Of a stretch of DNA of 64,000 nt, positions 43,578 through 51,305 are shown one piece after another. Made by a program: the position numbers and the translations under genes. Source of the DNA: Thermosipho melanesiensis BI429 (lineage in GTDB: Bacteria; Thermotogota; Thermotogae; Thermotogales; Fervidobacteriaceae); assembly GCF_000016905.1 (NCBI RefSeq), contig NC_009616.1, forward strand, positions 1,488,001 to 1,552,000. The letters run 5' to 3'. The notes beneath the pieces were generated by a model. It was given only the letters and a program-made list of their open reading frames with translations, searched no databases and was not told the DNA's origin. The first letter of the stretch is position 1. Each line of letters begins with the position of its first letter.

Positions 43578-43592
43578 AGTAAGGTGATATAT

Positions 43593-44294
43593 ATGGATTG
43601 GATATTAAAAGAAAATATAGAAGAATTAAAAAAGATGGTTTTGAAAGAAGGTTGGCTTATTGAATCTCTTTTAAATCAAGTTTTAAATGCTTTAAAAGAA
43701 AGAGATAAGGAAGCAGTGTTAAACGCTTTAAAAAATGAGAATGAAATTAATGTAATGGATATGAAGATAAAGGAGAAGGCTTTAATTATTTTATCTACTT
43801 TAATGCCCATGTCCAAAGATTTAAGGATGGTAACGGGAAGTTTTGTAATTTCAAGTTATTTTCAAGATATTTCTGAAAAAACACTTGATATTGCCAGAAA
43901 AATTTTGGAATTAATTAAAGAACCACAATTAAAACCACTTATTACTATACCAGAAATGACTAAAATTTCTTTGATAATGTTAAGGGAAAGTATGAGAATG
44001 TTTGCTGATCAAAATATATTGGGGGCTGAATCAATTTGTGAAAAGGATGCTGAAATTGACAATTTTTTTGATGACATTAGAAAAGAATTAATGGTTTATA
44101 TGATGGAAGATGCAAGGTATGTAAAAAGGGCTTTAATATTATTAGAAATCTCTCAAAAGATTGAAGAAATAGCAGATATTGCAACAAAGATAGTGGAAAC
44201 AACTTCGTACATAATAACCGGTAGGCAATATAAATGTTTTGGCGATAAATTGCATACCATAGAGACTTTAGAAGATATGGGGGATAAAATTTGA
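43593..44294 (+). CDS. PhoU-like regulatory protein
   Basis: 233 residues from the ATG at 43593 (AAGGTGATATAT upstream); a GTG at 43584 is inside that ribosome site. Two PhoU three-helix repeats with the E-x3-D metal-binding motifs (E-K-D-A-E-I-D; E-I-S-Q-K-I-E-E-I-A-D). PhoU modulates phosphate uptake or phosphate-responsive kinases. No pst or pho genes are adjacent; instead the stop overlaps the Lpt fusion gene as TTGA. Confidence 0.87.
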   Translation: MDWILKENIEELKKMVLKEGWLIESLLNQVLNALKERDKEAVLNALKNENEINVMDMKIKEKALIILSTLMPMSKDLRMVTGSFVISSYFQDISEKTLDIARKILELIKEPQLKPLITIPEMTKISLIMLRESMRMFADQNILGAESICEKDAEIDNFFDDIRKELMVYMMEDARYVKRALILLEISQKIEEIADIATKIVETTSYIITGRQYKCFGDKLHTIETLEDMGDKI

Positions 44295-47200
44295 GGGTTT
44301 TAACAAAGTATATCTTAAAGCTTTCAATAGGTCCTTTTATAATGGGTGTTGCTGCATTTGTTTTGTTTGCAAGTGTTGAGTTACTTTATCAACTATCGGA
44401 TATAATTGTAAGGCATAGGGTTGGTATACTTAAACTTTTTGAGTTAATATATTATAATCTTCCGTATTTTGTTTCTATGGGAATACCAGTCGGTGTTTTG
44501 TTTTCTATATTTTGGGTTTTGTCACAACTTTATAGTTCTAAAGAAATTACTGCTATGCTAGTCCATGGAATTCCATCAAGAAAATTGGTTTATCCATTCT
44601 TTTTATTATCTGTTTTGTTTGGCCTTTTTGCATTTTATCTAAATGATCAAATGGTTCCAACATTTAACCACAAGGCAATGAAGACTATTTCAAAGTATGT
44701 GTATAAAAGACCGGAGATTTCTATTAGGGAAAATGTCTTAACAAAAATAGATGAATCACAATATTTTTTTGTGAAAAGATATGATCAATCAAGTGGGATC
44801 TTGTACGATGTAGTCCTCTTTCAACATATTCAAGGAGAAGAACGTATAATTACAGCAGAGAAGGTTCAAAAAGATGAAGGAAAGTGGTTTTTGATAAACG
44901 GAAAAATGTATGTAACAGACAAAGATGGTTTTCTAAAGTTTGATGTAAATTTTTCGAAAATTTCTTTGGATTTAAAGGATGATTTAGAAAGTCTAATGAG
45001 AGTTGGAAAATCTCCACGAGATATGACTGGCGATGAATTAAAAAATAAAATTAAAACTTTTAGGAAGTTGGGGGTAGATCCTTCCCCGTGGATTGTGGAG
45101 TTACATGGAAGGTATGCGAATTCTGTTGGGCCCTTTATAATAACTATTCTTGGAGTTCCATTGTCTTTGTTATTTGGATTAAAAAGTAAATCCTGGAGTG
45201 TGATTTTTACCTTTGCTATAGTTATTTTGTATCAGGGTTCTGGTGCTTGGATTTCTGCAATGGGTAAAGAGAATCTTTTAAATCCAGTGCTTGCAGCATG
45301 GTTTCCAAATTTAGTATTTATTTCGGTGGGTTTATTTTTGTTTTTAATGCTTGATACTCCTTTTGCTTATAAGTTAAGAGAGCTGTTATCAAAATTTATG
45401 ATAGTTATTTTTTTAATTGTAATATCTACTAATGTTTTTTCAAATACAATTACATTGGAAGCTTCAAATGTTATTTATAAAGATAATTTTATACACGCAA
45501 AAGAGAATGTGCGTATTTTTTGGGATGAGAATATTTTAACTTCTAGTGAAGCGACGATTTTAGTGGAAAATTCAAAGGCAAAAATTTTAGAGGCATATGG
45601 AAATGTGAAATTTAATAAAGAAGGAAAGGTTTATAATGCAAAGTACGTGAAATATTTTTTTTCTGAAAAAAAATCATATGCCGTACGTGTAAGAGGAGTT
45701 GAAAAATATAAATCTAAAAAAGGTAAAGTAGATTTGTATTTTGGTGCGGAAAACTTTGAGAAAAAAAAAGGTTATATTAATCTAAACGAAGCATATATTA
45801 CAACATGTGAACTTGAAAAACCACATTATAGAGTAGAAGCGTTAGATGTTTATATTTATGAGGATAGATATCTAGTAGCTGAAAATTCCATGTTATTTTT
45901 GTTTGAATTTCCTTTTTTTCCATATCCTGTGTATTTTTCAAGTTTGAGTGAGGATTCCAAATCTCCATTTTCATTTTCATTTTCAATAGATAGCAAATTA
46001 AATTTTTCAACTCGTCAAGAGTATAGCTTATACGTGGATAACTATTTGTTAAGTACCACTTTTGAAACAGGGGAAGGTTCTAATTTGATATTTACAATTT
46101 TAGATGGTAAAGAAAAAATTTTTTATATTGATTACGGAAAAAAATATCTTTTGGTGGATTTAGGATATTTAGAATATAACACTAGATGGGATTTAAAGAC
46201 AACAAATTTAAAGCTAACATTTTTCCCGTTTTACTATTCTGAAAGTTTAAACACATTATGGTTTAAAAGAATAGGAGTATCATTTAAGACTAAAAGTTAC
46301 TTTTTTGACTTAAACTTAAATAGAAATGATAAGGAATTTTCAATAAATAACGTATTTAGTTTAAGTGGATTAAAGAAAGATTTAGATTTTACAGAGCTTT
46401 ATATTAGCAATTTTAGATTTATAAGTTCAGTTAAAAAAATTAGCGAAGAGATCTTATTTGATGAAACGGGAAGTTATAATGTTTCTTTTAAAGATAAATT
46501 TTACACTACAAATTTCAGTGGAAATTTAAAGAATGAAAGTTATGTAAGTAAAATATTTCATAAGTTTAATTTACCTTTTGAATATAAGAGTGATTTTTTT
46601 GATGTTAATTTTGAATATAACTTTGGGTTAAGTTGTTACAATGCTTTAACTGATAAATATTACTTGAGATTGGGATTATATGATGCCTATAAATTATCAG
46701 GCAATCTAAAATTTGAGGTACTTGAACTCAAGCCTGAGTATGGATATAGAAAAAATTTCAGGGATGAGGCAACAAATACGGAATATAATAAATTCAGTAT
46801 AAGGCTTTACGTAAAGAGCAAATTTCTCAATTTTTTATTAACACAAGGGTATGATTTTTTTTATAATAAGATGTTAAATGACAAAATTATGGTAAAGTTT
46901 TCTTGGAATAAATTTTTTTTACAGGCTGATACGGAATACGATTTCAAGTTAAAAAAACTGAACCCTTCTTCTGTGAAGATTTCGTATGTAGATTCATCTA
47001 TCCCTTTAAATTATAGTGCTAATTTTAAATATTACCATATGGAACAAATACCAGTTAGGGAAATTACTCATTTGGTAACTTTTCAGAAATTAAAGGGTCG
47101 TGTACGTCAATCGATAGAGGAAAATTACATAAAAAATGCGTATTTTAAGGGAAGTTTTTTTGTAAATAAATGTGAGAATATTTTGGAATTAAATTATCTG

Positions 47201-47581
47201 AAAAAGAGCAAAGATTCAGACCCTTCTTATACATTGAATTATAAATTAAAGAGTGGTGATGATACATTTTTGTTGGGTTATAAAAGCAATTATAAGTATT
47301 TAGAAATAGGAGTTAATTTGAAATCTATTGATCCTGGATTAATATTAGATGCGGTGTATAACTTTGAAACTGAAAAATTTAAGGAACTAAAGATATCAAT
47401 TCTAAAGAGGCTTCACCATTGGATGTTTGAATTTTCGTCAGAGTTCGAGTTTAACGATGATGGAATCTTTGATTTAGATGATGTGAATAAACTTTCAGTA
47501 CTGTTTTATATAATAGAATTTGAAGATAAATTTTTTGGATGGGACTTTAAAGAAAATAAACCTAATATTGGCTTATTCTAA
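44291..47581 (+). CDS. LptF/LptG permease fused to an OstA/LptD-like envelope protein
   Basis: 1096 residues in one uninterrupted frame. Residues 1-360 are a complete LptF/G permease: three N-terminal helices, a periplasmic domain (about 125-260), and three C-terminal helices (about 275-355). A short basic loop (K-L-R-E-L-L-S-K) follows, then a signal-peptide-like helix from M370 (I-V-I-F-L-I-V-I-S-T-N-V-F-S). The rest (about 385-1096) is beta-rich. It has OstA/LptA-like strands first (I-T-L-E-A-S-N-V-I-Y-K-D ... A-K-E-N-V-R-I), then LptD-like motifs (Y-I-T-T-C-E-L-E-K-P-H-Y-R and F-P-Y-P-V-Y-F), then aromatic-rich barrel-like sequence. In proteobacteria LptF/G, LptA and LptD are separate proteins carrying lipopolysaccharide across the envelope. 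TTG start at 44291 after GGGGGATAAAAT; it overlaps phoU. Internal initiation at M370 (45398) cannot be excluded. Confidence 0.85.
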   Translation: MRVLTKYILKLSIGPFIMGVAAFVLFASVELLYQLSDIIVRHRVGILKLFELIYYNLPYFVSMGIPVGVLFSIFWVLSQLYSSKEITAMLVHGIPSRKLVYPFFLLSVLFGLFAFYLNDQMVPTFNHKAMKTISKYVYKRPEISIRENVLTKIDESQYFFVKRYDQSSGILYDVVLFQHIQGEERIITAEKVQKDEGKWFLINGKMYVTDKDGFLKFDVNFSKISLDLKDDLESLMRVGKSPRDMTGDELKNKIKTFRKLGVDPSPWIVELHGRYANSVGPFIITILGVPLSLLFGLKSKSWSVIFTFAIVILYQGSGAWISAMGKENLLNPVLAAWFPNLVFISVGLFLFLMLDTPFAYKLRELLSKFMIVIFLIVISTNVFSNTITLEASNVIYKDNFIHAKENVRIFWDENILTSSEATILVENSKAKILEAYGNVKFNKEGKVYNAKYVKYFFSEKKSYAVRVRGVEKYKSKKGKVDLYFGAENFEKKKGYINLNEAYITTCELEKPHYRVEALDVYIYEDRYLVAENSMLFLFEFPFFPYPVYFSSLSEDSKSPFSFSFSIDSKLNFSTRQEYSLYVDNYLLSTTFETGEGSNLIFTILDGKEKIFYIDYGKKYLLVDLGYLEYNTRWDLKTTNLKLTFFPFYYSESLNTLWFKRIGVSFKTKSYFFDLNLNRNDKEFSINNVFSLSGLKKDLDFTELYISNFRFISSVKKISEEILFDETGSYNVSFKDKFYTTNFSGNLKNESYVSKIFHKFNLPFEYKSDFFDVNFEYNFGLSCYNALTDKYYLRLGLYDAYKLSGNLKFEVLELKPEYGYRKNFRDEATNTEYNKFSIRLYVKSKFLNFLLTQGYDFFYNKMLNDKIMVKFSWNKFFLQADTEYDFKLKKLNPSSVKISYVDSSIPLNYSANFKYYHMEQIPVREITHLVTFQKLKGRVRQSIEENYIKNAYFKGSFFVNKCENILELNYLKKSKDSDPSYTLNYKLKSGDDTFLLGYKSNYKYLEIGVNLKSIDPGLILDAVYNFETEKFKELKISILKRLHHWMFEFSSEFEFNDDGIFDLDDVNKLSVLFYIIEFEDKFFGWDFKENKPNIGLF

Positions 47582-50148: not shown

Positions 50149-50401
50149 AGAAAAGTTAGCAGTTGCTTTGAAATACAATCCTAAAACAGATTTTGTTCCT
50201 TTTGTTGTTGCAAAAGGCAAAGAAGAAGTTGCGGAGAAAATTATGGAACTTGCCAAAAAAAGTGGAGTTCCAATCGTAAGATCTTCCAAAATTGTTGGTG
50301 AGCTTTTTAAGCTAAATGTTTTAGAAGAAATTCCTGAAAAGATGTATGTTGTCATAGCAGAAATTATAGCGTTTATTCAATCGCAAAAAGGAAGTGAATA
50401 A
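50132..50401 (+). CDS. FlhB C-terminal-domain homologue (YlqH-like)
   Basis: About 89 residues from a GTG at 50132; TTG codons at 50126 and 50117 are alternative starts, and no strong ribosome site settles it. The sequence A-V-A-L-K-Y-N-P-K-T-D, V-V-A-K-G-K, G-V-P-I-V-R-S, L-F-K-L-N-V and I-P-E-K-M-Y-V-V-I-A-E-I-I-A-F matches the cytoplasmic tail of FlhB. The autocleavage N-P-T-H motif is absent (S-R-E-K stands in its place). Stand-alone FlhB tails can substitute for the FlhB C-terminal fragment in export switching. It overlaps the preceding gene by 17 bases. Confidence 0.85.
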   Translation: MVYTSREKLAVALKYNPKTDFVPFVVAKGKEEVAEKIMELAKKSGVPIVRSSKIVGELFKLNVLEEIPEKMYVVIAEIIAFIQSQKGSE

Positions 50402-50402
50402 T

Positions 50403-51305
50403 ATGAAAAAAATTTTCGCTTTGTTACTTGTTGTATTTTCGGTAATTTCCTTTTCAGAAATTTCTATAAGTTTTGGGATATCTTTTGGGAATTTAGAAGG
50501 TTTAAGTGACTATTCTTTAGTTATAGTAACAGGAGAGTCTTTCATGGATGTGTATGTTGATGGAGAATATATGGGTCAAACTGATATTTTTGGGCAGTTT
50601 ATTGTAACTTTTGAGGAAAGTGGCTATCATTTTGTTGAAGTGCAATCGGAAGACTATATTGTTTTTTCAAGAATGATTTTTATTCGAAAAGAGGGGGTAG
50701 TTTTAAAGTTAAAACCAATTAAAGCTGGTAGAATAGTTGTATTTTCAAATGTTTATCCAATAAATGTGTATATAGATGGAATTTTTTGGGGAGAAATAAA
50801 GAACGAGAATGAGGAGTTGAAGCTACCCATTGGAGAATATAAAGTAATGTTTTCATCACCTGGATATGAAAAGTTAGAAAAAGAATTAGTAATAGATTTT
50901 AAAAGAGTAACACCTGTTGAACTTTTTTTAAAAAAGTTACCTTTGGAGATGTATTTAAGAAGCGATTATAATGAATTTTCACCGAATGGTGATTGGTATA
51001 GAGATAATTGGGAATTAGAGATTTTGTTGACTACTTTTTCAACGGTTACAGTAGATATATATAAAGGGGATTTAAAAATTGATAATTATGTTTTTTCAGG
51101 TGTTCCAGGTGTAAATTTGTTTAAATGGAATGGTGTGAAAGAAGAAGGAGATTACTTAGTAAAAGTTAGTGCATATGATGAAGATGAGATTGTAACAAAG
51201 AGTACTAATGTGAAAATAAATATGAAATATACGTATTTGAAAGAGTTGGTTATTATAAGTTTACTATCCTTAGTTGGTGTTATTGTATATTCAATTGTGA
51301 AATAG
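50403..51305 (+). CDS. Exported PEGA-domain protein with FlgD-like Ig domain and C-terminal anchor
   Basis: 300 residues from the ATG at 50403 (AAGGAAGTG upstream). Signal peptide about 1-18. PEGA-like beta units (about 35-100: M-D-V-Y-V-D-G-E-Y-M-G; about 105-175: I-N-V-Y-I-D-G-I-F-W-G). Then a domain starting F-S-P-N-G-D-W-Y-R-D (about 195-270), the hallmark of FlgD/CHU_C-like Ig folds. A single hydrophobic helix closes the protein (about 279-299). Likely anchored in the membrane and exposed to the periplasm. It overlaps nothing and lies one base after the FlhB-like stop. Confidence 0.85.
   Translation: MKKIFALLLVVFSVISFSEISISFGISFGNLEGLSDYSLVIVTGESFMDVYVDGEYMGQTDIFGQFIVTFEESGYHFVEVQSEDYIVFSRMIFIRKEGVVLKLKPIKAGRIVVFSNVYPINVYIDGIFWGEIKNENEELKLPIGEYKVMFSSPGYEKLEKELVIDFKRVTPVELFLKKLPLEMYLRSDYNEFSPNGDWYRDNWELEILLTTFSTVTVDIYKGDLKIDNYVFSGVPGVNLFKWNGVKEEGDYLVKVSAYDEDEIVTKSTNVKINMKYTYLKELVIISLLSLVGVIVYSIVK

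What the first reader, a model, noticed from the sequence alone, without database searches (positions are those of the whole stretch)
44291..47581. Inner-membrane LptF/G permease and OstA/LptD-like part in one polypeptide
A single 1096-codon frame holds a full six-helix LptF/G-like permease, then an internal signal-peptide-like helix (from M370), then about 710 residues with OstA-like strands and LptD-like motifs. In known systems these are separate proteins (LptF/G, LptA/C, LptD). With both ends of an LptF/G unit in the cytoplasm, the extra helix would put the second part in the periplasm. The chain could then bridge the inner membrane, periplasm and toga, or be processed at the internal signal site. 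Thermotogae are not known for classical LPS, so the cargo is open.
Basis: partly seen in the sequence, partly recalled or inferred. Interest (0 to 1): 0.75.

Follow-up and report, generated by a model that had tools for sequence, protein, structure and literature searches.

The report
Fused lipid exporter and outer-membrane translocon
In Thermotoga-type bacteria one gene encodes both the inner-membrane pump and the outer-membrane exit pore of a lipid-export machine, joined by what looks like a preserved cleavage signal, so the two parts are probably made as one chain and then cut apart.

Summary
The frame 44291-47581 (+, TTG start, 1096 aa) is a complete LptF/G-type permease (Pfam E 5e-75) followed by a complete LptD-type outer-membrane translocon. 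No single-sequence Pfam search sees the second half. A family profile and an AlphaFold model (pLDDT 88) do: the top 34 solved-structure matches are all LptD (best E 7e-19), and the profile aligns with E. coli LptD through Cys173 (E 1e-5).

The fusion is the rule, not an oddity. All 103 Thermotogota genomes searched have a match, nearly always as one frame, usually with a single LptF/G copy. Bipolaricaulota have the fusion too. Two lineages that split the halves nest inside fused clades.

At the junction the 79 fused proteins examined keep a signal-peptidase-I-like pattern two residues before the LptD part: A/G/S at -1 in 72 of 79. Separate LptA-like proteins carry the same pattern in their signal peptides. 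The toga lies about 50 nm from the cytoplasmic membrane; the LptD arm starts at the membrane and spans only some 5-6 nm. I conclude this is probably a polyprotein cut between S384 and N385, releasing LptD for BamA insertion, rather than a covalent bridge. The cargo is unknown (no LpxC).

The parts
44291..47581 (+). Fused gene, 1096 aa: LptF/G-type permease plus LptD-type translocon
44291..45349 (+). LptF/G permease, residues 1-353, six transmembrane helices
   Evidence: PF03739 over 352 of 353 positions, E 4.8e-75; helices in the model; Foldseek LptG/LptF, TMt up to 0.75
44735..44968 (+). Periplasmic beta (jellyroll-type) domain inside the permease, residues 149-226
   Evidence: strands E149-226 in the AlphaFold model
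45377..45442 (+). Internal signal-peptide-like segment, residues 363-384 (RELLSK, hydrophobic core, STNVFS)
   Evidence: hydropathy; helix 357-380; aligned in 79 relatives
45440..45445 (+). Predicted signal peptidase I site S384|N385
   Evidence: A/G/S at -1 in 72/79, neutral residue at -3 in 76/79, F/Y/W at -2 in 59/79, two residues before the first LptD strand; inferred, not shown biochemically
45446..45925 (+). LptD N-terminal beta-taco (OstA/LptD_N-like), about residues 386-545, with TTC motif 504-506 aligned to E. coli LptD Cys173
45968..47569 (+). LptD beta-barrel, about residues 560-1093, with C-terminal K-x-LH(C/H)W motif at 1039-1044
   Evidence: AlphaFold pLDDT 87.8, Foldseek LptD E 7.3e-19; invariant C-terminal columns

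Best explanation
The gene encodes an Lpt polyprotein. The permease part (residues 1 to about 353) inserts in the inner membrane with its C-terminus in the cytoplasm. As the genome has no other LptF/G, it forms a homodimer with two LptB ATPases. Residues about 363-384 act as an internal signal peptide that starts export of the rest through Sec. Signal peptidase I cuts between S384 and N385. The freed LptD (about 712 aa) is inserted in the outer membrane (toga) by BamA. A separate 207-aa LptA-like protein forms the periplasmic bridge, and the machine carries a non-LPS amphiphile, probably a glycolipid, to the outer leaflet. Shown by sequence or model: both halves, the phylum-wide fusion, single LptF/G, LptB, LptA-like, BamA and signal peptidase genes, no LpxC, the conserved motif. 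Inferred: actual cleavage, homodimer, BamA insertion, cargo.
For: Permease identity. LptD identity. Fusion in 103/103 Thermotogota genomes, nearly always one frame, and in Bipolaricaulota. Single LptF/G in own genome and no second LptD. LptB over cut-off next to an OmpH/Skp-like gene. LptA-like protein with its own signal peptide. BamA, signal peptidase I, no LpxC. Cleavage motif at the junction: -1 A/G/S in 72/79, versus 0-58% at shifts of one to six residues; same x-F-S/A pattern before the first strand in LptA-like signal peptides; most Bipolaricaulota read WA|QEPPP or LA|QEPPP. Hydrophobic-core length varies while the motif stays. Natural split in L098: permease stops at KRLLG*, LptD restarts with its own signal peptide ending KVFS. 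The unfused genome G045 and L098 nest in fused clades (quick tree). Geometry: toga about 50 nm from the cytoplasmic membrane (PMC3387000) against a taco of about 12 strands starting some 4 residues after the helix.
Against: No biochemical proof of cleavage. An E. coli-derived site matrix separated the junctions from other transmembrane-helix ends only modestly, and a matrix trained on 19 local signal peptides did not separate them from their own shuffles (p 0.10). Conserved small residues could also serve helix packing. Conservation of the fusion over two phyla could mean that the covalent link itself matters. The tree is a quick one with long branches for the unfused copies. The 5-6 nm taco length is an estimate from strand count.
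Confidence: 0.72

Rival explanations
1. The chain stays whole and is a covalent bridge: permease in the inner membrane, periplasmic taco, barrel in the outer membrane, one polypeptide from cytoplasm to surface.
For: One uninterrupted frame in two phyla; the model places the first LptD strand about four residues after the helix, so cargo could pass directly from the permease domain to the LptD taco.
Against: About 12 taco strands span roughly 5-6 nm (estimate), while the toga lies about 50 nm from the cytoplasmic membrane (PMC3387000); the cleavage motif is kept; two lineages manage with separate genes; a separate LptA-like bridge protein exists.
Confidence: 0.1
2. Partly processed or dual-role chain: an uncut fraction uses the extra helix plus taco as a built-in LptC (helix and beta-taco beside the permease), and a cut fraction supplies LptD.
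For: No LptC by Pfam in the genome; helix plus taco next to the permease has the layout of LptC.
Against: LptC is fast-evolving and may be missed, and the LptA-like protein could fill that role; an uncut chain would leave a barrel in the periplasm.
Confidence: 0.1
3. Separate translation: LptD is made from an internal start near codon 370.
For: ATG at 45398 opens a signal-peptide-like stretch.
Against: M370 is not conserved; no ribosome-binding-like site before it; only 10 of 79 relatives have any start plus such a site near the junction, at scattered positions, against 41 of 79 at the chosen gene start.
Confidence: 0.05
4. The second half is an unrelated barrel (porin-like), not LptD.
For: No single-sequence family match; two of 25 relatives match Porin_4; TM-scores to LptD are only 0.3-0.4.
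Against: The 34 best structural matches are all LptD; the profile aligns LptD through the taco, Cys173 and the P-FY-P motif; 78 of 79 keep the TTC cysteine and most keep a C-terminal cysteine.
Confidence: 0.02

Closest known systems
LptF/LptG permeases of the LptB2FG transporter
   Same: Full six-helix permease with periplasmic beta domain; Pfam LptF_LptG over the whole model; LptB present.
   Different: One gene instead of two, so probably a homodimer; carries an exported C-terminal extension of about 712 aa.
LptD (OstA/Imp), outer-membrane translocon
   Same: N-terminal taco, barrel, TTC cysteine aligned with E. coli Cys173, C-terminal LHCW-type motif in most relatives.
   Different: No gene of its own; begins inside the permease frame; no LptE sought; in the window's genus the C-terminal cysteine is His, so the usual disulfide is probably lost.
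Borrelia LPS-independent Lpt system (PMC10353723)
   Same: Lpt machinery in an LPS-lacking diderm, glycolipid cargo proposed.
   Different: There LptF, LptG, LptA, LptC and LptD are encoded by separate genes.
Bradyrhizobium FbcH (cytochrome b/c1) polyprotein, recalled from memory, not tested here
   Same: Bacterial membrane polyprotein separated at an internal signal sequence.
   Different: Both products stay in the inner-membrane bc1 complex; here the products would go to different membranes.

Membership tests
LptF/LptG permease | PF03739 match over the whole domain | tested here: met
   E 4.8e-75, 1-352 of 353
LptF/LptG permease | Six transmembrane helices with periplasmic beta domain; partner ATPase LptB in the genome | tested here: met
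   model, LptB 293 bits, cut-off 240
LptF/LptG permease | Two distinct permeases, LptF and LptG | tested here: not met
   only one PF03739 gene in the genome; NCBIfam LptF and LptG equivalog cut-offs not reached
LptD | N-terminal LptD_N/OstA taco | tested here: met
   20 of 25 relatives; profile vs LptA/LptD; window sequence alone gives no hit
LptD | Large C-terminal beta-barrel arranged as in LptD | tested here: met
   Foldseek top 34 all LptD, best E 7.3e-19, but TM-score only 0.3-0.4
LptD | Cysteines for the taco-barrel disulfide (E. coli C173-C725) | tested here: not met
   C506 present, but the C-terminal partner is His1043 in the window protein; a C-terminal Cys is present in most relatives
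LptD | Outer-membrane location | not testable with these tools
   needs fractionation
LptD | Partner lipoprotein LptE | not tested
   too divergent to search reliably
LPS export (Lpt) pathway | Lipid A synthesis (LpxC) | tested here: not met
   no LpxC in the genome
LPS export (Lpt) pathway | LptA/LptC bridge | tested here: inconclusive
   one 207-aa LptA-like protein; no LptC by Pfam
Signal peptidase I substrate | Basic n-region, hydrophobic core, small residues at -3/-1 | tested here: met
   enzyme present; matrix tests weak or negative; cleavage itself not testable here

The most novel reading that the evidence does not exclude
The chain is not cut, or not fully cut, and works as a single polypeptide running from the cytoplasmic ATPase partner through the inner membrane to the cell surface, at places where toga and cytoplasmic membrane come close: a covalent trans-envelope lipid exporter.
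Probability: 0.1. Interest if true: 0.88.

Novelty: new variant of a known kind. Interest (0 to 1): 0.64.

Why it matters
A published survey states that Thermotogae lack nearly all outer-membrane genes it studied apart from bamA, and that lptD is never found in atypical diderms (PMC8871954). Here every Thermotogota genome searched matches the fused family, and the LptD sits in a frame whose only single-sequence family match is the permease. The toga is therefore probably served by a full Lpt-type lipid route, which makes the open question of its surface lipid directly testable. A permease-translocon polyprotein with fixed 1:1 supply would be a new way of building a trans-envelope machine. The shared fusion is also a rare genomic character linking Thermotogota with Bipolaricaulota.

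Tried and rejected
Single-sequence Pfam, NCBIfam and PDB searches of the second half found nothing. An E. coli signal-peptidase matrix was too alanine-rich for this phylum and gave only a modest separation. A matrix learned from 19 local signal peptides was over-fitted and did not separate junctions from shuffles. I then used the alignment-anchored column counts with shifted positions and the LptA-like signal peptides as controls. Internal translation start: rejected. Assembly or sequencing artefact: rejected by 79 distinct fused proteins. The apparent splits in G001, G027 and L122 look like frameshifts (sequencing error or mutation) and the one in G098 like a contig break; only L098/G094 and G045 look like real fission. 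Other phyla near Thermotogota (Synergistota, Deinococcota, Atribacterota, Caldisericota) could not be sampled under the caps. Literature search found no description of the fusion; two likely reviews (10.1093/femsre/fuv026, 10.1038/s41579-024-01088-0) are not held, so prior mention cannot be excluded.

Full report
Observation. The frame 44291-47581 is intact, 1096 aa, TTG start, overlapping the preceding PhoU-domain gene by four bases. Its first 353 residues are an LptF/G permease (structure). The second half has no family match on its own.

The second half is LptD. A profile of 25 relatives matches LptA (E 1e-3) and, weakly, LptD chains, the LptD alignments running through the taco and the motif TTC...P-FY-P. 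Twenty of 25 relatives match Pfam LptD_N. hhalign against E. coli LptD gives E 1.1e-5 and puts C506 on Cys173. AlphaFold gives a taco and large barrel at mean pLDDT 87.8. Foldseek returns only LptD in the first 34 ranks, best E 7.3e-19; the low TM-scores (0.3-0.4) mean the domain orientation and barrel shape are not well matched. The full-length model returns both LptG/LptF and LptD.

Distribution. All 103 Thermotogota genomes searched have a match, nearly always as a single frame of about 1070-1490 codons. The gene order ruvB-yggS-yggT-nadK-phoU-fusion is kept across Thermotogales and in several other families, which points to vertical inheritance. Bipolaricaulota also have it: eight loci contain both halves and one was confirmed with both Pfam domains over cut-off. 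In a search of that phylum, about 76 of 91 genomes with an LptF/G carry it in a frame of 960 codons or more (the second half was checked only in the eight).

Two real separations were found. In L098/G094 the permease ends at KRLLG* and LptD starts four bases later with its own signal peptide. In G045 two adjacent permeases and a separate 849-aa LptD occur. Both nest inside fused clades in a quick tree. The fusion therefore looks ancestral and the separations secondary; in G045 separation came with a second permease.

The junction. Seventy-nine fused proteins were aligned. A basic segment (R-E-x-L-S-R/K in many) is followed by a hydrophobic core of varying length and then a fixed pattern: A/G/S at -1 in 72, F/Y/W at -2 in 59, a neutral small or aliphatic residue at -3 in 76, in most of them two residues before the first LptD strand. 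Shifting the reading by one to six residues either way drops the -1 share to between 0 and 58%. The LptA-like proteins of the same phylum, which have true N-terminal signal peptides, show the same x-F-S/A pattern at a similar distance from their first strand. Bipolaricaulota read for example AWA|QEPPP. Two matrix-based tests were weaker or negative, so the case rests on the aligned pattern and on the natural splits.

Geometry. In T. maritima a coiled coil holds the toga about 50 nm from the cytoplasmic membrane (PMC3387000). The LptD taco begins about four residues after the helix and has some 12 strands, roughly 5-6 nm by my estimate from strand spacing. An uncut chain could not place its barrel in the toga except where the membranes come close. 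Processing is the simplest reading.

The rest of the machine. The genome has one LptF/G, no second LptD, one LptB over cut-off beside an OmpH/Skp-like gene, one LptA-like protein, BamA and signal peptidase I. It has no LpxC and no LptC by Pfam. The cargo is thus not classical LPS; glycolipids have been proposed for LPS-lacking diderms, T. maritima among them (PMC10353723).

Literature. A 2022 survey reported that Thermotogae lack nearly all outer-membrane genes studied apart from bamA, and that lptD is never found in atypical diderms (PMC8871954). PMC10353723 cites Lpt orthologues in T. maritima; a text search of it for 'fusion' and 'fused' found nothing. The literature searches returned no paper describing the fusion; two key reviews are not held.

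Verdict. Real, conserved and functionally informative; a new variant of the Lpt system. Identity of both halves about 0.97; processing at the junction about 0.75.

Noticed in passing
window 43584-44294: A PhoU-domain gene overlaps the start of the fusion by four bases and is its neighbour in most of the order; no reason for the pairing is known.
   Followed up: partly
window 47405-47422: The C-terminal LHCW motif reads LHHW in the window's genus and one sister genus, so the LptD-type disulfide partner of C506 is lost there but kept in most relatives.
   Followed up: partly
L131 2410-4743 and L132 3753-6302 (genome G045): Unfused organisation: two adjacent LptF/G permeases and a separate LptD; freeing the permease coincides with duplication into a pair.
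   Followed up: partly
L046 and L047 (1201 and 1179 aa): The fusion carries an extra OstA-like stretch between the signal-like segment and the TTC motif; other Thermotogota have chains enlarged to about 1450 aa.
   Followed up: no
L121 and L159: A disordered-looking linker of about 50-60 residues sits between the predicted cleavage site and the LptD part.
   Followed up: no
L133 4774-5951: An OmpH/Skp-like chaperone gene directly precedes lptB, pairing outer-membrane protein and lipid export genes.
   Followed up: partly
window 50394-51305: PEGA-domain protein with N-terminal signal peptide and C-terminal hydrophobic segment.
   Followed up: no
L160 2076-5409 (genome G001): The fused gene is broken by a frameshift in the barrel part; sequencing error or recent mutation.
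   Followed up: no
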